DNA of 64,000 nt from Nodularia sp. NIES-3585 (GTDB taxonomy: Bacteria > Cyanobacteriota > Cyanobacteriia > Cyanobacteriales > Nostocaceae). Position 1 is the first letter of the stretch, and each line of letters starts with the position of its first letter. The translations under genes and the position numbers were made by a program. Shown here piece after piece: positions 1,708 to 60,419 of this stretch. A model generated the notes under the pieces. The model was not told where the DNA came from. It made no database searches and worked only from the letters and a program-made list of their open reading frames with translations. The stretch is from the NCBI RefSeq assembly GCF_002218065.1, contig NZ_BDUB01000001.1, positions 2,947,270-3,011,269 on the forward strand, given 5' to 3'.

Positions 1708-3381
1708 ATGACCACATACCCCTCACCTCAACTTTGGCTCTATGACACCACGCTACGGGATGGCACTCAGTGCGAAGGACTATCAGTTTCAATAGAAGAT
1801 AAGTTACGCATTGCCCGCAGACTAGACCAACTGGGAGTTCCTTTCATCGAAGGTGGTTGGCCAGGTGCCAATCCCAAGGATGTTCAATTCTTCTGGCAAT
1901 TACAAGAGTATCCGCTTAAACAAGCAGAAATTGTAGCTTTTTGTTCTACACGCCGCCCTAACACTACTGCTGATACGGAACCAATGCTGCAAGCAATTCT
2001 GAATGCGGGTACTCGTTGGGTGACAGTTTTTGGCAAATCTTGGGATTTACACGTTACAGCCGGACTCAAGACGACTTTAGCAGAAAATCTAGCCATGATT
2101 CGAGATACTATCGAGTATCTTTGTTCTCAAGGGCGACGCGTGATTTATGATGCTGAACATTGGTTTGATGGCTACAAGCACAATCGAGACTATGCTTTAC
2201 AGTCATTAGAAGTGGCGATCGCCGCAGGGGCTGAATGGCTAGTCCTCTGTGATACAAATGGTGGTACTCTACCCCACGAAGTGAGTCAAATCGTGGAATC
2301 AGTTATTAGTCATGTGTCATTAGTCATTAGTCAAGAACCAATCCCCCAAATTGGCATTCACACTCATAATGATTCGGGTACAGCCGTGGCCAATGCCTTA
2401 GCTGCCGTTATGGCAGGGGCAACAATGGTACAAGGTACAATTAACGGCTACGGTGAACGTTGTGGTAATGCTAACCTTTGTTCATTAATTCCCAATCTAC
2501 AACTGAAGCTGGGTTATGGCTGTATTGCAGAACACCAGCTAAATCAACTTACAGAAGCTAGTCGCTTTGTCAGTGAAGTGGTAAACCTCGCCCCTGATGA
2601 ACACGCGCCCTTTGTGGGACGTTCGGCTTTTGCCCATAAAGGTGGTATCCATGTCTCAGCAGTAGAACGAAATCCCCTCACTTACGAACACATTCAACCA
2701 GAACAAGTCGGTAACCGTCGCCGCATAGTAATTTCCGAACAATCTGGACTCAGTAATGTTTTAGCTAAAGCCCGTAGTTTTGGGATTGAACTAGATAAAG
2801 ACAAACCAGCCGCCCGACAAATTCTACAACGCCTCAAAGAATTAGAAAGTGAAGGATATCAATTTGAAGCAGCAGAGGCCAGTTTTGCACTGTTGATGTA
2901 CGAAGCTTTGGGTGGTCGTCAAGAATTCTTTGAAGTCAAAGGTTTCCAAGTACATTGTGATTTAGTTGAAGGTAAAGAAACTAACAATGCCCTTGCCACA
3001 GTAAAAATAGGAGTCAATGGCAAAAATATTCTGGAAGCAGCAGAAGGAAATGGACCAGTTGCCGCTTTAGATGCCGCTCTACGCAAAGCTTTGGTGAATT
3101 TTTACCCCCAAATTGCCACCTTTGAGTTGACAGATTATAAAGTGCGAATTCTCAATGGACATACAGGTACAGCAGCTAAAACTCGTGTGTTAGTTGAATC
3201 AGGTACTGGTTCTGAACGCTGGACAACTGTAGGAGTTTCGCCCAACATTTTGGCAGCTTCCTATCAAGCCGTGGTAGAGGGATTGGAATATGGTTTGTTG
3301 TTACATTCCCAAGCAGAAGAGGCAGGGAGTGGGGAGTGGGGAGTGGGGAGTGGGGAGTGGGCAGTAGGGAGTGGGCAGTAG
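1708..3381 (+). CDS. cimA: Citramalate synthase
   Basis: A 557-residue member of the CimA branch (TIGR00977) of the HMGL-like/LeuA family. It condenses pyruvate and acetyl-CoA to (R)-citramalate, the threonine-independent entry to isoleucine. The N-terminus carries LYDTTLRDGTQ (about residues 11-21), the metal site HTHNDSG lies near residue 220, and a C-terminal LeuA dimer/regulatory-like domain follows. The ATG at 1708 is preferred; an upstream in-frame TTG at 1666 would add 14 unlikely residues. Two oddities are linked to heptamer repeats. A 28-bp TTAGTCA-type run (2306-2333) is translated inside the barrel domain just before the metal site. The last 18-19 codons are made entirely of the GGGAGTG-type repeat, which also supplies the stop. 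Confidence 0.93.
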   Translation: MTTYPSPQLWLYDTTLRDGTQCEGLSVSIEDKLRIARRLDQLGVPFIEGGWPGANPKDVQFFWQLQEYPLKQAEIVAFCSTRRPNTTADTEPMLQAILNAGTRWVTVFGKSWDLHVTAGLKTTLAENLAMIRDTIEYLCSQGRRVIYDAEHWFDGYKHNRDYALQSLEVAIAAGAEWLVLCDTNGGTLPHEVSQIVESVISHVSLVISQEPIPQIGIHTHNDSGTAVANALAAVMAGATMVQGTINGYGERCGNANLCSLIPNLQLKLGYGCIAEHQLNQLTEASRFVSEVVNLAPDEHAPFVGRSAFAHKGGIHVSAVERNPLTYEHIQPEQVGNRRRIVISEQSGLSNVLAKARSFGIELDKDKPAARQILQRLKELESEGYQFEAAEASFALLMYEALGGRQEFFEVKGFQVHCDLVEGKETNNALATVKIGVNGKNILEAAEGNGPVAALDAALRKALVNFYPQIATFELTDYKVRILNGHTGTAAKTRVLVESGTGSERWTTVGVSPNILAASYQAVVEGLEYGLLLHSQAEEAGSGEWGVGSGEWAVGSGQ

Positions 3382-3435
3382 GGAGTGGGCAGTAGGGAGT
3401 GGGCAGTAGGGAGTAGGGAGTGGGGAGTGGGGAGT
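3324..3435. repeat. STRR heptamer array, [A/G]GG[G/C]AGT x16
   Basis: Sixteen uninterrupted heptamers: GGGGAGT with variants AGGGAGT and GGGCAGT. On the other strand this is the ACTCCCC type. It begins inside the cimA coding frame and runs past the cimA stop. Confidence 0.95.
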
Positions 3436-3479
3436 GAAGAGGCCGGGGTGCAGGGTGCATGGGGGAAAAGACGGTAATC

Positions 3480-3627
3480 CAATAACCAATGACTAATGAC
3501 CAATGACTAATAACCAAGAACTAATGACCAATGACTAATAACCAAGAACTAATGACCAATGACTAATAACCAAGAACTAATGACCAATGACTAATGACTA
3601 ATGACTAATGACCAATGACCAATGACT
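3480..3627. repeat. STRR heptamer array, CTAATGA/CCAATGA type
   Basis: About 21 degenerate heptamers (CTAATGA, CCAATGA, CTAATAA, CCAAGAA). Four of them form a 28-bp higher-order unit that recurs about three times. Read on the opposite strand this is TTGGTCA/TTAGTCA/TTGGTTA. The array lies between cimA and a convergent small gene and ends 2 bp from that gene's stop. Confidence 0.95.
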
Positions 3628-3628
3628 C

Positions 3629-3862
3629 TCAAGAGAACTGTTCCCAGGATTGGCTAACTAATTTACTTAGCCAACGGCGTTGTTGCTGATTTAACATGGG
3701 GTCATCAGCTAGTAGTTGAGCGGTTAATTCCTCTAATGATTGTCCCTCAGAACTAACAAGTTTGATGACTCCAGCAATGGCTGAGGCTACTAGTTCTTCA
3801 TCTATCGGCTGTTGTCGCAGGGCAAAAATTTCCTGGGGACTGTCTGGGATGGGATAATTCAT
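3629..3862 (-). CDS. Small conserved-looking hypothetical protein (77 aa)
   Basis: From the ATG at 3862 the product starts MNYPIPDSPQEIFALRQQPI and is 77 residues, predicted largely helical, hydrophilic and without membrane segments. A longer frame from 3907 would add a hydrophobic 15-residue leader, but the internal methionine gives a more natural soluble N-terminus. There is no recognisable domain. The stop codon abuts a heptamer repeat array. Function unknown. Confidence 0.6.
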   Translation of the reverse strand: MNYPIPDSPQEIFALRQQPIDEELVASAIAGVIKLVSSEGQSLEELTAQLLADDPMLNQQQRRWLSKLVSQSWEQFS

Positions 3863-4023
3863 GACGTAGGGTAAAAAAAATACAAAATGAACAATAAACT
3901 TTGACAAACTATTAAAATTTCTTTACTCAATCTTTATTGAACCAATAGGGCGGAGTCTAGCGTAATTTCCACCTTTAAAAAATCTGTCTGAGTGAATAGA
4001 TTCATCGGAGATGTCAGCAAAAA

Positions 4024-6168
4024 ATGATGAAAGAAATACTTTATTTAGAAGTTCCCACACCGGATGTTGCAACTGTACTTGCTTGGTTGCAAATAGATTT
4101 TGAACCAGGAATCGGGGAAAAATTACTCCGACCTGATGGCTTTCGCCTGAAAATACACAGAGAAGCTACAAATCCTCAGGCGGCGATTACCGAAAAATTA
4201 CCGCCCGAACTTTCTGTATTTGTCTGGTCAGTGCAGCGAACTACTTATCTAAAAGTGTTTCGTTGGGCAGATCAGCCCGTTGCTGGAGAATCACAAATCC
4301 TGCAACGTCTGAGTCAGGAAATCAGAAAGAAATTTCCCCATGAATATCCTGAACCTCCCGCCATTGATTCCCAAAAGTCGATTTTCGAGGAGCTAGCAAC
4401 CTCTTATCCCCTGACAGTGAAATATTTTCAGCAAATGCCTAATGGGGAATATGACCTGAATCGTGCCTACTGGTGGGAACAAAGGTGGCGTGAAGGAGTA
4501 CGTAATCCTCGGCAGCCCCGTCAAGTCATTTTTTCCACCGGCGGCGAATTTGGGGGAGTGCAGGAACAGGTTGGTAAAACATCCTCCTCATCTCCTATCT
4601 ATGACCTAATCTACATTGGCGGTGCATTAGGGGTAATTCATGCCGCTGTCATGGCCAGATTGGGATACAAGGTGCTACTAGTGGAACGTTTGCCCTTTGG
4701 ACGGATGAATCGAGAATGGAATATTTCTCGTGATGAACTTCAAAGCTTAATTAATCTGGGTTTGTTAACATCTGCTGAGTTAGAATCTGTAATTGTTCGG
4801 GAATACAAAGACGGATTCAATAAATTTTTTGATGGCAACAATTCCGTCAAATTGCGATCGCCTATTCTACACACCCCCACTGTCTTAAATATTGCCTTGG
4901 ACTCGGAGAAATGGCTGCGGATGTGCGGACAAAAACTTCAAGATGCCGGCGGTGAAATCTGGGATGAAACAGAGTTCATGCGTGCCGATATTGACGAATC
5001 ACAAGTGGCGATTACAGTCAAGCATTTACCCAGTAAAAATCAGCAGCGCGTCACAGGGAGACTATTAATTGATGCCATGGGAACAGCTTCTCCTGTGGCT
5101 TGGCAATTAAATGGTGGTCGTGCTTTTGACAGTGTATGCCCCACTGTGGGAGCAGTAATTGAGAGGGGATTTGAACCAGGAGTTTGGGATTCCCAGTATG
5201 GAGATGTGCTTTACAGTCACGGTGATATTTCCAGAGGAAGGCAGTTGATTTGGGAATTATTTCCGGGATTTGGCGAAGAACTGACAGTTTATTTATTTCA
5301 TTACCACGAAGTCAATGCCGAAAATCCTGGTTCCTTGCTGGAAATGTACGAGGACTTTTTCGCGATTTTGCCAGAGTATCGACGCTGTGATCTAGATAAA
5401 TTGGTCTGGAAAAAGCCGACATTTGGCTATATACCAGGACATTTTAGTGTAGGCAGTAGCGATCGCACCATTGCCTTTGACAGATTAATTGCCATTGGTG
5501 ATGCTGCATCTCTCCAGTCTCCTCTAGTTTTCACGGGTTTTGGTTCCCTAATTCGCAATTTAGAGCGTTTAACAACACTTTTAGATACAGCCCTCAAGCA
5601 TGACTTGCTCAGTTTCCGCAATTTAAACCGGATTCGCGCCTACCAAAGCAACGTTTCTGTCACGTGGCTATTTTCTAAGGGAATGATGGTTCCAACTGGG
5701 AAGTTTTTACCCCCTCAACGGATTAACTCGATGCTGAATACCTTCTTTGGGTTGCTAGCAGATGAACCACCACACGTAGCAGATAACTTCATTAAAGATA
5801 GGTGTGATTGGTTGACGTTTAACCGTCTAGCCTTGAAAGCAGCGCGCAAAAATCCTGCCTTGCTGTTATGGATTTGGCAACTAGCTGGATATAGGGATCT
5901 AGTCCGGTGGCTGGGTAATTATTTTAGTTTCGGTCTTCATTCCCTCGTGAGTGCTTTACTAAAAGGATGGTTCCCGCGTTTGTTAGTGCGGATTCAACCT
6001 TGGCTGGAACCCCGCTATCCGGCGTTGTGGTTGCGGCTGTTGGTGATTAAATACGCGATCGCTGCTGGTAAACTGGGAACTGACTTGTCAGTGCGATCGC
6101 CAAATCATTCAGCACCAGTCAATCCAGATGCCAATATCCCCAAATCAGAAGCGAAAATTCTGAATTAG
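4024..6168 (+). CDS. cruA: CruA/CruP-type lycopene cyclase family flavoprotein
   Basis: A 714-residue protein with an N-terminal extension of about 190 residues, then a flavin-binding Rossmann start (YIGGALGVIHAA, near residue 197) and the family signature NREWNISRDEL near residue 229. Further conserved blocks are LLIDAMGTASP, IAIGDAASLQSPL and FTGFGSLIRNLERL. These belong to the CruA/CruP lycopene cyclases, which cyclise lycopene to gamma- or beta-carotene at the membrane. The long N-terminal extension and overall length favour CruA over the shorter CruP, but the two were not separated by alignment. Two adjacent ATGs (4024, 4027) are possible starts. It is monocistronic by spacing. Confidence 0.65.
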   Translation: MMKEILYLEVPTPDVATVLAWLQIDFEPGIGEKLLRPDGFRLKIHREATNPQAAITEKLPPELSVFVWSVQRTTYLKVFRWADQPVAGESQILQRLSQEIRKKFPHEYPEPPAIDSQKSIFEELATSYPLTVKYFQQMPNGEYDLNRAYWWEQRWREGVRNPRQPRQVIFSTGGEFGGVQEQVGKTSSSSPIYDLIYIGGALGVIHAAVMARLGYKVLLVERLPFGRMNREWNISRDELQSLINLGLLTSAELESVIVREYKDGFNKFFDGNNSVKLRSPILHTPTVLNIALDSEKWLRMCGQKLQDAGGEIWDETEFMRADIDESQVAITVKHLPSKNQQRVTGRLLIDAMGTASPVAWQLNGGRAFDSVCPTVGAVIERGFEPGVWDSQYGDVLYSHGDISRGRQLIWELFPGFGEELTVYLFHYHEVNAENPGSLLEMYEDFFAILPEYRRCDLDKLVWKKPTFGYIPGHFSVGSSDRTIAFDRLIAIGDAASLQSPLVFTGFGSLIRNLERLTTLLDTALKHDLLSFRNLNRIRAYQSNVSVTWLFSKGMMVPTGKFLPPQRINSMLNTFFGLLADEPPHVADNFIKDRCDWLTFNRLALKAARKNPALLLWIWQLAGYRDLVRWLGNYFSFGLHSLVSALLKGWFPRLLVRIQPWLEPRYPALWLRLLVIKYAIAAGKLGTDLSVRSPNHSAPVNPDANIPKSEAKILN

Positions 6169-6242: not shown

Positions 6243-6414
6243 AATTTTCGGGGAATTAATTTTTTGGTGTTCCCTTAGTTGAGGAATTTCCCAAAAAGAA
6301 ATTGCCTACCTTTCTTCATCCAAATTGAACTTTCCTAACCTTCTGACTTAGTTTCAACTCAAAAATTATCAACAGCCCAAAGCGTATTCATAGCGAAGAT
6401 GGTACAATTTCAAT

Positions 6415-7888
<1,474 letters not shown>

Positions 7889-8199: not shown

Positions 8200-8459
8200 A
8201 TGACTTGCTAATCTCGTGATCAATTTGCTAAAGAATATCTGGAAGAATTATTAATACCTCTAGGAATAATGGAAAAAACAAAAAGGTTAAAATTGAAAAA
8301 ATTGATGTTTTTTTTGAAGCATTTAATTTGATAACTTCTTTTATAGAAGGGCATTTTGGTAGTTTACGACAGTATATTTTTTGTTAGTTTGATGAAATTT
8401 ACCCAACTGCTAGTTCTGTTTCTGACAAAAACGAAGGTTGGCACTATGGAGACAATGAA
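8200..8459 (+). pseudogene. Decayed ORF upstream of the DUF262 gene
   Basis: Frame-shifted coding-like DNA. From 8215 it reads RDQFAKEYLEELLIPLG, which resembles the start of a nuclease-like ORF family common in cyanobacteria. After a frame change it reads VKIEKIDVFFEAFNLITSF, then meets a TAG near 8385. It then continues FDEIYPTASSVSDKNEG in frame with the DUF262 start at 8460. At least one frameshift and one stop break any continuous protein. The A/T-rich composition matches the gene downstream, suggesting they arrived together. Confidence 0.5.
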
Positions 8460-10253
8460 ATGAGTTACGAAAAAATGACCATTAAGCAAGTTGTTGAAAA
8501 AATTGGTAATAACGAAATTTATCTACCTGCAATACAAAGAAGATTTGTTTGGAAGCAAGACCAGATAGAAAAATTATTTGACTCCATTCAACAGGGTTAT
8601 CCTATTGGGACATTTCTTTTTTGGTTTTTAAATAAACCTCACATTGATGAATATGTTTTTTATAAATTTCTTCAAAAATACCATGAGAGAGATAAATATC
8701 TTAATGATAAAACCCCCTATCCAGAATTAAAAGATCAAATCATTGGAGTTTTAGATGGACAACAGCGATTGAGTTCAATTTATTTGGCTTTGCAAGGGAC
8801 ATATTCTGTCAGAAAACCATATTCTAAAGGCAATCTAGATAGTCATTTTCCTGAGAAAAGGCTATTTATAAATCTTTTAAGTGAGGTGCATACTGATGAA
8901 GATAATGAGTTGAATTATTCTTTTAATTTTATTACCCAAGATGAAGCAATTGAGCGTAATAAAGACAAACTTTGGTTTAATGTTAGAGAGGTTCTCACAT
9001 GGCCAAAAGACAGTCCTCCAATTGATGAACACTATGATGAACTTCTTGCGAATAACAATTCGGACGTAGACATCATATCTAAGCTAAGAGAAACTTCGAC
9101 TAGAAATAGAGTTAAGAGAACACTCAGAGACCTTCATTCAAGAATTGTCCGGGATGAATTAATAAACTATTTTAAAATAGAAGAACAAGATTTAAACGAT
9201 ATATTAAAAATATTTGTTCGTGTTAATAGTGGTGGAACTGTTTTATCAAAAACTGATCTTTTATTCTCTACAATTGTTGCTAATTGGGAACATGGTCGAG
9301 ATGAAATAGAAAATTTTCTTAGCAGCATTAATAAAAAGGGCGATAGATTTAATTTCAATAATGACTTTGTAATGAGAAGTTGCTTAATGTTAACAGATTG
9401 CTCTGTTCTGTTTCAAGTTGGTAGTTTTAAAAATGATAATGTTATAAAAATCCAAACTGAGTGGGATAAAATCAAAGAAGCTATATCTAAAACAATTGAT
9501 TTGCTTGTTGAGTATGGCTTAAGTGGTTCTACCCTTGCGTCCCAAAATGCAATAATACCAATTGCATATTACATCAAGAAGAATGGAGTCTTAAATTGGC
9601 AAACTAAGCAAGAGCTTAAAAAATTCTTGTTTCATTCTTTACTTAAAAATATTTTTGGTGGTCAAGGAGATACTGTATTAACAAATTTCAGAAATTCATT
9701 AGCACAAAAAGATGAATCAACAAATGAATATATCCTGAAAAATAATGAATTTTCATTCGTAGAAATTTCATCAACAAAGCTTCCATCAAATAGAACATTA
9801 AAAGTGACTGATGAAGATATAGAGGAATTTCTGGATTATAAAAAAGGTAATTATGCGTTTCTCGTTTTATCTTTTTTATATCCAAATCTTAGATTTTCGA
9901 CCGTAAAGTTTCATCAAGATCACATACACCCAGCATCGCAATTTACGGATGCTAAACTAAAAGCAAATAAAATTGAAGTCCCTCAACATAAAATATTTCA
10001 GGAACTTAAAGATAAATTACCAAACCTGCAACTTATGGAAGGTTTAGAAAATCAGAGAAAAAACGCTACCCCTTTTAAAGATTGGCTTTCAGGTCAAGAT
10101 GAAAATGGCAACCCGATAGTACCAGATAAAAATAAGTTTTTATCTGATAACTATATAGACATAAATCAAAGCTTTGAATTTACAGATTTTGAAGATTTTT
10201 TCATAAATAGAAGAAATAAATTAAAATCTGCATTACAAAATCTCTTGAAATAG
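8460..10253 (+). CDS. DUF262/DUF1524 (GmrSD-like) HNH nuclease-family protein
   Basis: A 597-residue protein. The N-terminal DUF262 domain shows LPAIQRRFVW (residues 22-31), QGYPIGTFLFW and the signature DGQQR near residue 99, followed by FVRVNSGGTVLSKTDLL. The C-terminal region has an HNH-type block DHIHPASQF near residue 485 and NLQLMEGLENQRKN near residue 521, as in DUF1524. This is the single-chain layout of GmrSD-type modification-dependent restriction proteins; related DUF262 proteins restrict phages with modified DNA. The gene is visibly more A/T rich than its neighbours and sits in an accessory patch with decayed ORFs, a toxin-antitoxin pair and a methyltransferase, suggesting lateral gain. 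The substrate is unknown. Confidence 0.88.
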   Translation: MSYEKMTIKQVVEKIGNNEIYLPAIQRRFVWKQDQIEKLFDSIQQGYPIGTFLFWFLNKPHIDEYVFYKFLQKYHERDKYLNDKTPYPELKDQIIGVLDGQQRLSSIYLALQGTYSVRKPYSKGNLDSHFPEKRLFINLLSEVHTDEDNELNYSFNFITQDEAIERNKDKLWFNVREVLTWPKDSPPIDEHYDELLANNNSDVDIISKLRETSTRNRVKRTLRDLHSRIVRDELINYFKIEEQDLNDILKIFVRVNSGGTVLSKTDLLFSTIVANWEHGRDEIENFLSSINKKGDRFNFNNDFVMRSCLMLTDCSVLFQVGSFKNDNVIKIQTEWDKIKEAISKTIDLLVEYGLSGSTLASQNAIIPIAYYIKKNGVLNWQTKQELKKFLFHSLLKNIFGGQGDTVLTNFRNSLAQKDESTNEYILKNNEFSFVEISSTKLPSNRTLKVTDEDIEEFLDYKKGNYAFLVLSFLYPNLRFSTVKFHQDHIHPASQFTDAKLKANKIEVPQHKIFQELKDKLPNLQLMEGLENQRKNATPFKDWLSGQDENGNPIVPDKNKFLSDNYIDINQSFEFTDFEDFFINRRNKLKSALQNLLK

Positions 10254-55706: not shown

Positions 55707-55919
55707 ATGGAAACTCGAGAAACTCGCTCTTCCACTGACTTACCACCAGTTGCGTTGGAATACAATGGTAGAGATCGCAACGCGTTTTTGTTTGGATGGA
55801 CTCCTCAAGCCGAACTCTGGAACGGTCGGTTTGCAATGATTGGCTTCTTAGCCTATTTACTGTGGGATTTAGCTGGATATAGTGTTCTGCGGGACGTGCT
55901 ACATCTCATTGGTTATTAA
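55707..55919 (+). CDS. High-light-inducible protein (Hlip), copy 1
   Basis: A 70-residue one-helix chlorophyll-binding-family protein. The Hlip motif is ELWNGRFAMIGFLAYLLWD (residues 36-54), with conserved Glu, Asn and Arg ligands. It binds chlorophyll and carotenoid and protects photosystems or pigment synthesis under stress. It is tandem with a near-identical copy 42 bp downstream. Confidence 0.92.
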   Translation: METRETRSSTDLPPVALEYNGRDRNAFLFGWTPQAELWNGRFAMIGFLAYLLWDLAGYSVLRDVLHLIGY

Positions 55920-55961: not shown

Positions 55962-56174
55962 ATGGAAACTAAAGAAACTCGCCCTTCCACTGACTTACCA
56001 CCAGTTGCTAAAGCTTATAACGGTGTGGACCGCAACGCATTTCTGTTTGGTCTTAACCCTCAAGCCGAACTATGGAATGGTCGGCTAGCAATGATTGGCT
56101 TTCTGGCATATTTACTTTGGGACTTAGCGGGATATAGTGTCGTTAGAGACGTACTCCACCTCATTAGGTATTAG
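55962..56174 (+). CDS. High-light-inducible protein (Hlip), copy 2
   Basis: A 70-residue paralogue of the preceding gene, differing at about a dozen positions (for example LALE to AKAY, GRD to GVD, GWTP to GLNP). The Hlip motif ELWNGRLAMIGFLAYLLWD is intact. Tandem duplication, with a GGAG-like site before the ATG. A terminator-like hairpin follows at 56262. Confidence 0.92.
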   Translation: METKETRPSTDLPPVAKAYNGVDRNAFLFGLNPQAELWNGRLAMIGFLAYLLWDLAGYSVVRDVLHLIRY

Positions 56175-56416: not shown

Positions 56417-57754
56417 TTAAAAGAGAAAACGAATCATCACATACAATCCTAACGCCACAAGTTGCACAAGCATCACGGGAATACCATAACGAAGAAAAGT
56501 TTTAAAGGAAATGCGGCGACCGTGTTGCTCAGAAATACCTGCGGCTACGATATTAGAAGATGCTCCCACTAATGTGCCATTTCCTCCTAAAGTCGCACCA
56601 AACATCATGGCATAAAATAGTGGTAGCACTTCTGGAGGGAACTCGCCCAGAAAATCTGGTGCTAAAACTTCTGGAGGTGCTAATCCGACAGTAACGAGAT
56701 ATTGTTTAAGTAAAGGAACCATCCCGACTACTAATGGAATATTAGGTACTAGGCTTGATAGTATCCCCACAAAAAATAACAAAACTAAAGAACCCAGGAA
56801 AATATTTTTACCCAAAATTGTCGAAAATATTCCTGATAAAGCATTAATGACACCTGTTTTTTCCAACGCCCCAATTAGCACAAAAATACTCATAAAAAAT
56901 ATTAATGTACTCCAGTCTACATCTCGCAAAATATTCTTTACAGAATCAATTTTGCTATGGTGAGACAGTAGCAAAGCTAAAGCCGCACCTAATAAAGCCG
57001 CCGCCGCAGGTGAAATAGGTATGGGCAAAGATTCACCAATGACAAAAAAGATTAAAACTAAAGCTACAATCACTGCACCCACGGTGAGAACTTGTGGATG
57101 ATTGATTTGTATCTGTGGAAGTTCTGACAAAGTATCTAGTTTAGTATTCCAAATCTTTCGGAATAAAATGGGTAGTGATAATATCACCACGCCAACGGCA
57201 ATTACTCCCCCTAAACTTAAGTTCCATAAATAATCTATGAAGCTGATGTTAACTGCATCTCCCACAATAAAGGTAGCAGGATCACCAACTAATGTTAGCA
57301 GTCCAGCACTATTAGCAACTAAGACCATTAAAATTAATAAAGGGACAAAATTGATGCCTAATTCTTGAGCGATTGGTGGAATTAACGGTGCTAACAGCAT
57401 CACTGTTGTAGCATTGGGTAAAACTGCACAAATGGGAGTGACAATTCCCACAATACTAAGTAATAGACGCTTACCTTCGCCTTTAGCTAACAGAACTATT
57501 TGAGTAGCTAAGTAATCAAAAATTTTGGTAGACTCAAATGCCCGGACAAATACCATAACTCCGAAAAATAACCCCAGTGTCCCATGACTTTTACTGATGT
57601 AAGTAATGGCTTCTGGTAAAGTCATGACGTTAGCAAAAACTAATAATAATGCTCCTAGGAAGGCAGCAATAGTTAGATGCACCCATTCCGTTATGACCAA
57701 GAAAATTACACTGATAAAGATGAAAAAACTGAAAACTGCTTGCCAATTTTCCAC
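56417..57754 (-). CDS. ArsB/NhaD-type (SLC13/CitMHS-like) ion permease
   Basis: A 445-residue permease with about eleven membrane segments of the IT superfamily. It has the P-rich re-entrant motif PNATTVMLLAPLIPPIAQELG and the paired LVGDPATFIVGDAV and LVGASSNIVAAGISE elements. Relatives export arsenite, exchange Na+/H+ or import dicarboxylates. A terminator-like hairpin at 57794-57823 separates it from the USP gene, so joint transcription is uncertain. MITE-like element B abuts its stop. Confidence 0.87.
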   Translation of the reverse strand: MENWQAVFSFFIFISVIFLVITEWVHLTIAAFLGALLLVFANVMTLPEAITYISKSHGTLGLFFGVMVFVRAFESTKIFDYLATQIVLLAKGEGKRLLLSIVGIVTPICAVLPNATTVMLLAPLIPPIAQELGINFVPLLILMVLVANSAGLLTLVGDPATFIVGDAVNISFIDYLWNLSLGGVIAVGVVILSLPILFRKIWNTKLDTLSELPQIQINHPQVLTVGAVIVALVLIFFVIGESLPIPISPAAAALLGAALALLLSHHSKIDSVKNILRDVDWSTLIFFMSIFVLIGALEKTGVINALSGIFSTILGKNIFLGSLVLLFFVGILSSLVPNIPLVVGMVPLLKQYLVTVGLAPPEVLAPDFLGEFPPEVLPLFYAMMFGATLGGNGTLVGASSNIVAAGISEQHGRRISFKTFLRYGIPVMLVQLVALGLYVMIRFLF

Positions 57755-57793: not shown

Positions 57794-57823
57794 AAAAAAG
57801 CCACCTATATATAGGTGACTTTT
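57794..57823 (-). terminator. Terminator after the USP gene
   Basis: On the reverse strand, AGTCACCTATATATAGGTGGCT ends in a run of six T. It lies between the USP stop (57871) and the permease start (57754). Confidence 0.75.
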
Positions 57824-57870: not shown

Positions 57871-58506
57871 TTATTGATCAATACAATTGGGTATACCCAA
57901 AACTGCACAGGGAAAATTAGAACCTAGTCTTGGAATCATAGGATGATTAACAGATTTACATCCCAAAAACAAGATATCAGCAGCTTCCAATTCCACAACT
58001 TTTTTCAGTTCTTGAGCAATGGAGCCGAACCGCAGATGAGATTTAAATGAACCTTGCCATTCTTCAGCTAGGCTTCGTGCTTGCCAAATAATTCTGTCAG
58101 CTTCCTGGAGAGGAACAATGCATTTTTCTGGTAAACATTGTGTGATTCCTCTTAATTTTGATTGTGGTAATACGGGTATAGCAGATTCTGATACTGCACT
58201 TACCGCACATTCTAAAATCGGCAGAGATTTAGCAAAACTTGACAAATTTGGGTACTGATTTTGATGATTGTTGTCTACTACATAAACTGCTTGCACTCTC
58301 ACGTGTGCATTTGTAGCTAAACAGGTTTGATGGGCAATACAGAAGGCTAAATCTAGTGCAGTATGGCTATTAGGTGAAGCATCATAAGCAACGATGAAAT
58401 TGACAGCTTCAATTTCTGGAGCAAACGGTTTTTTTGGCTCTGGTAATAATACCATTTGCTCAATTAAGTCATCACGACCTATAGCGCTTTGCAGTCGCAC
58501 TAACAT
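57871..58506 (-). CDS. Universal stress protein (USP) family
   Basis: About 211 residues from ATG 58506. The USP-fold nucleotide-binding start is VNFIVAYDASPNSHTALDLA, followed by FKSHLRFGSIAQELKKVVEL and the C-terminal EAADILFLGCKSVNHPM to FPCAVLGIPNC. A GTG at 58521 with GGGGAG upstream is an alternative; the longer frame to 58629 runs towards the riboswitch and is rejected. It is preceded by a c-di-AMP riboswitch-like leader and followed by a terminator, so it is probably a single-gene transcript. USP folds bind ATP and, in some cases, c-di-AMP. Confidence 0.85.
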   Translation of the reverse strand: MLVRLQSAIGRDDLIEQMVLLPEPKKPFAPEIEAVNFIVAYDASPNSHTALDLAFCIAHQTCLATNAHVRVQAVYVVDNNHQNQYPNLSSFAKSLPILECAVSAVSESAIPVLPQSKLRGITQCLPEKCIVPLQEADRIIWQARSLAEEWQGSFKSHLRFGSIAQELKKVVELEAADILFLGCKSVNHPMIPRLGSNFPCAVLGIPNCIDQ

Positions 58507-58654
58507 TGGCTTTATTTTCACAATTTGGACTTCTCCCCAAAGAAACGAATGGTGAATGAGAAGTAGGTTAAAAACGGACATATCCCGGAGGATAAACAAG
58601 TTATATCCGCAAAGAAACCCCAATAACAACTGGTATTAAAGCCAAAGTTTTGGG

Positions 58655-58783
58655 AGTTCCTTCCATTGCCGACGGAGTTAGCTGACGGGCTAAGACTGGA
58701 AGGTGTCTCTCGTTAAGATTAGCCCCAAACATTGGTTCCTCCGTTCCAAATCCAGTTTTGATGAATTTGAATTAGGCTACCCA
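58655..58783 (-). promoter_or_regulatory. ydaO/yuaA-type (c-di-AMP) riboswitch
   Basis: Read on the reverse strand, the conserved segments of the ydaO class occur in order: AGCCTAATTC, then AACGGAGGAACCA, then GGGGCTAATC, then CACCTTCCAGTCTTAGCCCG, then CCGTCAGCTAACTCCGTCGGC. The near-invariant GTCAGCTAAC core is present. The 5' GCC and 3' GGC can close P1. The aptamer ends about 150 nt before the USP start codon, leaving room for an expression platform. In this class c-di-AMP binding usually turns genes off. Confidence 0.85.
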
Positions 58784-59231
58784 CTAAATAAATAGTAGTT
58801 TAATTTATCACTAATTAGGACTAGTTGTAAGAAAATTTATTATATATTTTAATCAGGAGTGTAGTAAAGTAGTATTGCTAATTTTTGACAACATTTCATA
58901 GTACATCTTAATTGTAAGCTGTTGAGCATTCAACTTGCACAAGTTAAACGGGTAAAATGCCCATCCCACGAGAGTTGTATTTAAATAAGTTGTGCAAAAT
59001 CAGCTTCTTTGAGCTTATTTAGTTGACTGGCTTCTAAGTAAAGATATATATTATACATCGCTTTTCTCAGTCAATCCAGGAAAAGAGTTTGTCTTGAATT
59101 TAAATCAAATCAGACCAGATATATTTTTTAGCCGTTGAACTTGCTCACTAATTATATTTATCTGTACTATACTCGCTAAAATAATTGTATATGTTAAGTT
59201 TACTCATCTACTCCAGACGCACTTTAAAACA
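58784..59231. other. Intergenic region, riboswitch to histidine kinase
   Basis: Divergent promoter region of about 450 bp. An inverted repeat (TTGCACAA, about 58935, and TTGTGCAA, about 58989) flanks GTAAAATGCCCATCCC. No ORF. Confidence 0.45.
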
Positions 59232-60419
59232 ATGGATTTTAGTCTGTTATTGGCTGAAAATACTGATGCCATTCTGAAAAAATGGGTTGCCGCAGTTCTT
59301 AAAGATAGGAAAATTGAAAGTGCCGAAGATTTACCTTATACAGCAATCCAAAATGATCTTCCTGATGTGTTAGACGCAATGGTAACCGTGCTATCAAAGT
59401 CTGAGGGTAATGATATTCAGTCGATAGTTACTGCCAGTTGGCATCATGGAATCCTGCGGGCTAAACAGGGCTTTGATCCAGGAGAAATTACTCATGAATA
59501 TCATCTACTCAGAATGGTAATATTTGATACGCTTCAAGCCGATTTATTGAAGGGAACACCTTCAGAAATTATCCGTTCTATGCGTTTGATTGATGCTGTC
59601 ATAGACGAAGCGATCGCTCAGTGTGTTAATAGTTATATTGAAGAACGCTTACAGGAATTCAAGCAGTTATATTCATCATTAGTGCTGCATAATCAGCAAC
59701 TCAATCGCTTGGTTGTTGCCAATCAAGATCATATTTCTCAACTCGCCCATGATCTGAAACATCCCTTAAGTTCGATTATTGGGTACTCAGATTTATTTTT
59801 ACGCCAACAGCGAAAAAAGCCGGAATTAAAAGACAACTACGCCAATATTGAACATATTGAGCGCGTATTACGCAATGGTAGACAATTACTTCGTTTGATT
59901 AACGACGTTCTGGAAATTTCGCGTTTTGATGCAGGTCAAATACAACTAAAACCAGCACTCATTAATGTACGTGAGTTAATCGACAATGTGTGTGAAATGT
60001 TGCAGCCTTTAGTGGATGAAAAAAAATTAACACTGGTAGTGGATTACGATAGTATTCCTCAAAAAGTAGTCACAGATGAATATCAACTACAACAGATTAT
60101 GACCAATCTGGTTAGTAATGCGATTCGATATACCGATTCGGGGACTATTAGTATACAATGTGAATTACTAGATAATAATCAGTGGTCAATCGCAGTTTCC
60201 GATACGGGAATTGGAATTACGCCAGAAAACCAAAACCAAATATTTAAACCCTATTTTCGCGCTAGTTCTGGTAGTCGGTCTTATCTTCCCGATAGTACTG
60301 GGTTGGGACTAGCTATAGTTTCTCGTTTAGTAAAATTATTGCAAGGTAAAATTGATTTAGTTTCTGAAGTAGAAGTTGGTTCTACTTTCACAGTAACTAT
60401 GCCTTTAGAACTGGAATAA
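59232..60419 (+). CDS. Histidine kinase with RsbRD-like N-terminal domain
   Basis: A 395-residue soluble kinase. Residues about 5-150 resemble the RsbRD/RsbT co-antagonist N-terminal domain (WVAAVLKDRKIESAEDLPY to ASWHHGILRAKQGFDPGEIT). A coiled link follows, then HisKA with LAHDLKHPLSSIIGYSDLF (His about 173). The ATPase domain has LQQIMTNLVSNAIRYTD, VSDTGIGI and GLGLAIV, all intact. No response regulator is adjacent. It has its own promoter region, divergent from the USP riboswitch leader. Confidence 0.9.
   Translation: MDFSLLLAENTDAILKKWVAAVLKDRKIESAEDLPYTAIQNDLPDVLDAMVTVLSKSEGNDIQSIVTASWHHGILRAKQGFDPGEITHEYHLLRMVIFDTLQADLLKGTPSEIIRSMRLIDAVIDEAIAQCVNSYIEERLQEFKQLYSSLVLHNQQLNRLVVANQDHISQLAHDLKHPLSSIIGYSDLFLRQQRKKPELKDNYANIEHIERVLRNGRQLLRLINDVLEISRFDAGQIQLKPALINVRELIDNVCEMLQPLVDEKKLTLVVDYDSIPQKVVTDEYQLQQIMTNLVSNAIRYTDSGTISIQCELLDNNQWSIAVSDTGIGITPENQNQIFKPYFRASSGSRSYLPDSTGLGLAIVSRLVKLLQGKIDLVSEVEVGSTFTVTMPLELE

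What the first reader, a model, noticed from the sequence alone, without database searches (positions are those of the whole stretch)
57871..58783. c-di-AMP (ydaO/yuaA) riboswitch controlling a universal stress protein
The reverse-strand leader holds the ordered ydaO motifs, including GTCAGCTAAC, followed after about 150 nt by a USP gene with its own terminator. ydaO riboswitches are best known upstream of wall hydrolases and K+/osmolyte transporters. A USP target, with an ion permease next door, would tie c-di-AMP to a stress or nucleotide-binding protein in cyanobacteria, where this signal is linked to osmotic and night survival.
Basis: partly seen in the sequence, partly recalled or inferred. 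Interest (0 to 1): 0.75.

Follow-up and report, generated by a model that had tools for sequence, protein, structure and literature searches.

The report
c-di-AMP riboswitch before stress protein gene
A cyanobacterium carries a well-formed RNA sensor of the known c-di-AMP family right before a gene for a divergent stress-type protein, and related genomes keep the two together, often beside transporter genes that carry the same sensor.

Summary
Rfam's c-di-AMP model (RF00379) matches window 58788-58655 (-) at 58.3 bits (cut-off 38), the only match in this genome. A 216-aa protein with a weak Usp domain starts 133 nt downstream.

The pair is conserved. An aptamer core lies upstream on the same strand in 91 of 91 family relatives, directly in 70, and in 80 of 80 named Nostocales loci. 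The commonest order is aptamer, nitrate/bicarbonate-type ABC transporter, aptamer, USP, ArsB/DASS-type permease; the window keeps only the second half. So the USP looks like a partner in an ion/solute transport regulon. A review reports a putative chloride exporter as the Synechocystis target.

Most likely c-di-AMP controls this USP; ligand binding and direction are untested. The leader holds a candidate switch, a 5'-end helix (P0) competing with the SD hairpin; support is modest, its link to ligand unshown. The USP lacks the KdpD c-di-AMP motif. Structure prediction failed. I file it as a new member of a known riboswitch class.

The parts
58839..58868 (-). promoter-like site TTTACT-18-TATAAT
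   Evidence: 10 of 12 consensus matches, but the scan found 4 such sites where shuffles gave a mean of 9.5, so no evidence by itself
58779..58785 (-). P0, 5' strand (AGUGGGU), directly before P1
   Evidence: 403 of 414 cells paired over six positions in 69 leaders; distinct combinations 179 of 186, reached by 42 of 2000 shuffles
58655..58788 (-). c-di-AMP (ydaO/yuaA) aptamer, RF00379
   Evidence: 58.3 bits, gathering score 38; P1, P1b and P6 covary in 69 distinct leaders
58697..58703 (-). pseudoknot, 5' strand (CCUUCCA)
   Evidence: nearly invariant among leaders before the USP; the aptamer before the ABC operon uses other letters that still pair
58659..58665 (-). pseudoknot, 3' strand (UGGAAGG), shared with hairpin HP2
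58611..58662 (-). hairpin HP2 after P1
   Evidence: conserved in sequence, does not covary: 0.871 paired against 0.868 in shuffles; -18.8 kcal/mol alone
58570..58609 (-). terminator-like hairpin with five T, in few relatives
   Evidence: terminator-like hits of any kind in 12 of 71 leaders, shuffles mean 3.1, max 6; this CGGATA type listed for window, L114, L126; -10.5 kcal/mol
58562..58568 (-). P0, 3' strand (ACCUACU)
   Evidence: folding with and without P0
58558..58564 (-). SD hairpin, 5' arm (ACUUCUC), overlaps P0 by three bases
   Evidence: CUUCUC exact in 63 of 71 leaders; pairing not above shuffles
58529..58538 (-). ribosome-binding site and SD hairpin 3' arm (GGGGAGAAGU)
   Evidence: GAGAAG exact in 68 of 71 leaders
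57871..58521 (-). universal stress protein homologue, 216 aa, GTG start
   Evidence: Pfam Usp 28.8 bits, cut-off 24; 15 of 19 homologues match Usp at E 0.001; GTG in 69 of 71 leaders
57797..57823 (-). terminator between USP and permease
   Evidence: hairpin with T tract; one of this kind in 32 of 38 loci
56417..57754 (-). CitMHS/ArsB-type permease, 445 aa, regulon partner
   Evidence: Pfam CitMHS 209 bits, ArsB 65 bits; directly behind an aptamer in other genomes
59232..60419 (+). divergent RsbRD_N histidine kinase, frequent neighbour

Best explanation
This is a c-di-AMP riboswitch of the ydaO/yuaA class that sets the expression of a divergent universal stress protein, a regular partner of a c-di-AMP-controlled ion and solute transport regulon. 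Shown by computation: the aptamer with its helices and pseudoknot, its place on the gene's strand, its conservation with this gene, the transporter neighbours, and two DAC-domain (c-di-AMP synthase type) genes in the genome. Inferred: c-di-AMP folds the aptamer and its pseudoknot, which takes the UGGAAGG strand away from hairpin HP2. The change reaches the ribosome-binding site through P0, a helix between the leader's 5' end and the bases just before the SD hairpin: P0 loosens the hairpin, loss of P0 closes it. In the window's clade a terminator-like hairpin may add early termination. By precedent of the class (recalled, not from a call) high c-di-AMP lowers expression; I give OFF about 0.65 and ON 0.35. 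The USP would then be made when c-di-AMP is low and would help to adjust transport or protect the cell under ionic or osmotic change.
For: RF00379 above cut-off, once in the genome. Covarying P1, P1b, P6; pseudoknot kept with other letters in the sister aptamer. Aptamer core upstream in 91 of 91 family relatives, directly in 70, in 80 of 80 named loci. USP in 92 of 105 family genomes with RF00379 and 0 of 13 without (hand count). In hand-picked genomes of other families, of 23 USP genes 10 have a core directly upstream and 11 follow the ABC ATPase gene. ABC operon and permease carry the same riboswitch elsewhere. Two DAC genes in the genome. P0.
Against: No ligand binding or expression data. 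Most relatives were scored with a 12-base core pattern, not the full model. HP2 and the SD hairpin do not covary, and the SD stem is no longer than with shuffled 5' sides. Reserving the pseudoknot strands did not change pairing of the SD, so the link from ligand to SD is unshown. c-di-AMP rose threefold 15 minutes into darkness in S. elongatus (passage) and threefold under sorbitol in Synechocystis (passage): an OFF switch would then lower the USP in these conditions, which sits badly with a protective role there. The USP match is weak and 4 of 19 homologues miss Usp at E 0.001.
Confidence: 0.75

Rival explanations
1. The permease downstream is the main target and the USP is only the first gene of the unit; the riboswitch controls both by read-through past the terminator between them.
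For: The permease is directly behind an aptamer in other genomes. A review names a putative chloride exporter, slr0753, as the Synechocystis target (passage). Only 46 bases or fewer separate the terminator from the permease start in the window, little room for a promoter.
Against: A terminator lies between USP and permease in 32 of 38 loci. The aptamer-USP pair is often kept without the permease nearby: the permease is in 43 of 91 fetched stretches.
Confidence: 0.15
2. The leader is a decaying or altered aptamer left behind after loss of the ABC operon, no longer a working c-di-AMP sensor.
For: Lower score (58.3) than many relatives, the best of which reach 80 to 90 bits. The ABC binding protein was not found in the genome (a search without positive control).
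Against: Well above the gathering score, core helices and pseudoknot intact. The unusual GGGGCUAAUC is the second commonest form, 39 of 178 distinct pattern matches. Leader, USP and permease are kept in G444 of the same genus.
Confidence: 0.05
3. The riboswitch is an ON switch: ligand stabilises P1 and with it P0, which frees the ribosome-binding site.
For: P0 abuts P1, and forcing P0 lowers pairing of the SD bases from 0.77-0.99 to 0.37-0.65. c-di-AMP rises in darkness and under sorbitol in two cyanobacteria (passages), when a stress protein would be useful.
Against: Class precedent is OFF (recalled). P0 also forms in the free RNA model, pair probability 0.96, so ligand is not needed for it on paper.
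Confidence: 0.3

Closest known systems
ydaO/yuaA (c-di-AMP) riboswitches, Rfam RF00379; in cyanobacteria the leader of Synechocystis slr0753
   Same: Aptamer fold, core letters, place before a gene of ion/solute homeostasis
   Different: Target is a USP; P0 and the SD hairpin are not part of the Rfam consensus. slr0753 itself was not at hand for comparison
USP domain of the KdpD kinase, which binds c-di-AMP (PMC8214093, passages)
   Same: Usp family; c-di-AMP context
   Different: Stand-alone protein; motif [AGC]xSxSxxN[YF] in 0 of 92 sequences
NrtABCD/CmpABCD nitrate and bicarbonate ABC transporters (the operon beside the USP in relatives)
   Same: Permease ntrB 237.5 bits (cut-off 209.05), ATPase ntrCD 352 (cut-off 291.8), binding protein similar to NrtA 2g29 and CmpA 2i48
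   Different: Order permease, binding protein, ATPase; twin-arginine signal; substrate unknown; binding protein not found in the window's genome

Membership tests
c-di-AMP riboswitch (RF00379) | covariance-model score above gathering | tested here: met
   58.3 against 38 bits
c-di-AMP riboswitch (RF00379) | core helices and conserved GTCAGCTAAC | tested here: met
   alignment; pair counts
c-di-AMP riboswitch (RF00379) | pseudoknot between the P6 loop and the 3' tail (as I recall the class) | tested here: met
   481 of 483 cells paired; different but pairing letters in the sister aptamer
c-di-AMP riboswitch (RF00379) | lies in the 5' leader of a gene on the same strand | tested here: met
c-di-AMP riboswitch (RF00379) | organism has a diadenylate cyclase | tested here: met
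   two PF02457 matches, 128.1 and 50 bits
c-di-AMP riboswitch (RF00379) | expression platform coupled to ligand | tested here: inconclusive
   P0/SD exchange possible; pseudoknot reservation has no effect on SD pairing
c-di-AMP riboswitch (RF00379) | binds c-di-AMP | not testable with these tools
   needs in-line probing or ITC
Universal stress protein (PF00582) | Pfam score above gathering | tested here: met
   28.8 against 24 bits
Universal stress protein, ATP-binding type | G-x2-G-x9-G-(S/T) motif | tested here: not met
   second Gly is Ser190, invariant in 19 homologues
KdpD-type c-di-AMP-binding USP | [AGC]xSxSxxN[YF] | tested here: not met
   0 of 92; motif from PMC8214093
Universal stress protein (PF00582) | alpha/beta fold | not tested
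   structure job interrupted; no PDB sequence match for the profile

The most novel reading that the evidence does not exclude
The USP is a dedicated accessory of a c-di-AMP regulon that gates the neighbouring transporter by binding a nucleotide, so that the cell reads c-di-AMP at both the RNA and the protein level. Its leader would use a new expression platform in which the 5' end of the leader (P0) exchanges with the ribosome-binding-site hairpin, possibly as an ON switch.
Probability: 0.15. Interest if true: 0.7.

Novelty: new member of a known kind. Interest (0 to 1): 0.48.

Why it matters
It gives filamentous cyanobacteria a compact, testable c-di-AMP regulon: an ABC transporter of the nitrate/bicarbonate type, a permease of the ArsB/DASS type, and a USP. 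A USP that follows this transporter through several families is a good candidate for an unknown protein step in c-di-AMP control of transport. The leader could also serve as a reporter of c-di-AMP in cyanobacteria.

Tried and rejected
HP2 as a terminator whose T tract is freed by the pseudoknot: the inner stem plus UUUCUUU fits a few leaders, but terminator-like hits are in 12 of 71 leaders only (20 mononucleotide shuffles: mean 3.1, max 6), and many relatives read UUUCCUU (partly cut output).

Freed HP2 3' arm as an anti-SD strand: reserving the pseudoknot strands left SD pairing unchanged. Not supported.

SD hairpin: a permissive stem test found stems as long when the 5' side was shuffled, and pair counts equal shuffles; I rely only on strict conservation of CUUCUC and GAGAAG, which is not proof of pairing.

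Direct c-di-AMP binding by the USP through the KdpD motif: 0 of 92. The Walker-motif count in that call used a loose pattern and is not used; I read the motif from the alignment.

A conserved -10 box before P0: an alignment of 69 upstream stretches shows a frequent TTAGACTATCAT some 10 to 20 bases before AGTGGG, but no chance expectation was computed, so I make no claim of a start site.

Papers on a USP target of this riboswitch: (titles, abstract starts, counts) showed me none. Nelson et al. 2013, whose target list may hold it, is not in the library. Passages only were seen of PMC3766115, PMC5986932, PMC5897029, PMC10117731, PMC6488665, PMC4284465, PMC5386190, PMC8670252, PMC9896922, PMC8214093 and PMC6753628; all others were seen as search listings. 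Mantovani et al. 2022 and Kobayashi et al. 2006 are known to me only as cited in PMC10117731.

Full report
What is there. RF00379 matches window 58788-58655 on the minus strand with 58.3 bits, gathering score 38. It is the only match in the 5.77 Mb genome. A protein of 216 aa starts at GTG 58521. Pfam finds Usp at 28.8 bits, cut-off 24, and nothing else above its cut-off; in the genome it is the weakest of 18 Usp matches. NCBIfam lists nothing at E 0.01. Downstream are a terminator and a 445-aa permease of the CitMHS/ArsB type, below the NCBIfam cut-offs of the families it resembles, with PDB sequence matches to an arsenical pump and to NadC-family transporters such as VcINDY. Upstream and divergent is a histidine kinase with an RsbRD_N domain.

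Is it more than chance. RF00379 occurs in 258 of 388 genomes of the order and in 105 of 118 of the family. The USP has one match in each of 92 of 118 family genomes. By hand count, it is in 92 of the 105 with RF00379 and in 0 of the 13 without. I fetched the neighbourhoods of the 91 other than the window (which also took 9 aptamer loci without the USP). A 12-base core of the aptamer lies upstream on the same strand in 91 of 91 and within 450 nt of the USP in 70 of 91. The core is a pattern, not a model score, and I did not check each one against RF00379. In 80 named Nostocales loci (the best 80 of 142 relatives) a core lies directly upstream in 79 and somewhere upstream in 80; this set overlaps the first in part. 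In 48 genomes that I picked by hand from other families, 21 have the USP at E 1e-20. These gave 24 loci of 23 genes, one hit twice: 10 genes have a core directly upstream, 11 have none in the 1.5 kb held but follow the ABC ATPase gene, and 2 have neither; these 2 are second copies behind another USP.

What surrounds it. In the 91 loci the commonest order is kinase (divergent), aptamer, permease B, binding protein A, ATPase D, aptamer, USP, permease: 19 loci. The same without the last permease: 16. Aptamer and USP alone: 14. The other 42 are variants, and some stretches end at contig ends. B and D pass the cut-offs of nitrate ABC transporter models; A resembles NrtA and CmpA. The binding protein was not found in the window's genome (without a positive control). 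G278 of the same genus has aptamer-B-A-D and no USP match, while window and G444 have aptamer-USP-permease, without B-A-D in the stretch fetched. In a first-gene survey of 80 cores from loci L001-L060 and L193-L212, B came first in 49, the permease in 8, this USP in 5, and 18 were not classified. These loci are mostly the best-scoring hits, some overlap or share a gene, so the numbers are not a random sample. The 18 include what look to me like glycosyltransferases, a P-type ATPase and an antiporter, by recall of sequence starts only.

Known context. A review states that in Synechocystis the c-di-AMP riboswitch regulates slr0753, a putative chloride efflux transporter (passage of PMC10117731). 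A table lists an sRNA, Ncr1680, joined to slr0753 (passage of PMC5386190). I could not compare slr0753 itself. Earlier work ties cyanobacterial riboswitches of this class to osmoprotectants (passages of PMC5986932). The USP domain of S. aureus KdpD binds c-di-AMP (abstract and passages of PMC8214093), and S. elongatus KdpD was found to bind it (passage of PMC5897029). Against a simple OFF-and-protect reading, c-di-AMP rose threefold after onset of darkness in S. elongatus and was threefold higher under sorbitol in Synechocystis.

The leader. Of 71 leaders with a core directly before the USP (window included), 70 were aligned, L123 being dropped because no P1 start was found, and 69 distinct rows were counted. 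P1, P1b and P6 covary; P2 and P4 hardly vary; the pseudoknot is nearly invariant. The aptamer before the ABC operon uses other pseudoknot letters that still pair, for instance UCUCUCA with UGAGAGG against CCUUCCA with UGGAAGG. HP2 after P1 shares the UGGAAGG strand with the pseudoknot, so the two compete, but HP2 does not covary. P0 joins AGUGGG, just before P1, with CC[UC][GA]CU (commonest form) just before the SD arm: 403 of 414 cells are standard pairs (my sum over six positions, 69 leaders, L123 and L175 dropped), and distinct combinations pair 179 of 186 times, which 42 of 2000 shuffles reach. P0 and the SD hairpin share three bases. In the window RNA, with P0 forced the SD bases are 0.37-0.65 paired, with P0 forbidden 0.77-0.99; best energies are -75.0 and -71.5 kcal/mol, and -74.1 with the SD hairpin forced. 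Reserving the pseudoknot strands did not change SD pairing. So a balanced switch exists on paper and its link to the ligand is not shown. A terminator-like hairpin with five T lies in the window's leader and in few relatives.

The protein. In 19 homologues G187, C188 and S190 are invariant, so the second Gly of the ATP motif is Ser; 15 of the 19 match Usp at E 0.001. The residue at the end of the first strand is D in 46 and N in 43 of 92; the KdpD c-di-AMP motif is in none. No PDB sequence matches the profile at E 0.01. A structure prediction was accepted but interrupted, then not available. Nucleotide binding is open.

Verdict. A real, conserved c-di-AMP-class riboswitch on a USP gene. The class is known. 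The target fits an ion/solute regulon, and I did not find it described in the papers that I could search, while the key target list (Nelson et al. 2013) was not readable here.

Noticed in passing
window 6411-6507 (+): A TPP riboswitch, RF00059, 63.9 bits against a gathering score of 54.3.
   Followed up: no
window 55707-55919 and 55962-56174 (+): Two neighbouring 70-aa frames that are alike; the first just passes the chlorophyll a/b-binding cut-off, so a pair of high-light-inducible-type genes is likely.
   Followed up: no
G000:C2:107559-107879 (locus L192): A second, weaker DAC-domain match (50 bits) in a 592-aa frame on contig C2, besides the 128-bit one on C1: perhaps a second c-di-AMP synthase.
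   Followed up: no
L197 (G020), cores at 8775, 6713 and 2968 (-): Three aptamer cores in one stretch, one each before the permease, the ABC operon and the USP.
   Followed up: partly
L207 (G086), cores at 8311 and 8852 (+): Two aptamer cores about 540 bases apart before the same ABC operon: a tandem riboswitch.
   Followed up: no
L310/L324 (G147) and L313/L325 (G065): Two copies of the USP about 1 kb apart; only the first has an aptamer core directly upstream.
   Followed up: partly
L106 (G292), 2731-4201 in the USP's orientation: The ABC genes between the two aptamers look shrunken and fused, the start of the binding protein joined to the ATPase: decay or an assembly fault.
   Followed up: no
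L182 (G278) against window and G444, same genus: One genus member keeps the aptamer and ABC operon without the USP, two keep the aptamer and USP without the ABC operon in the stretch seen.
   Followed up: partly
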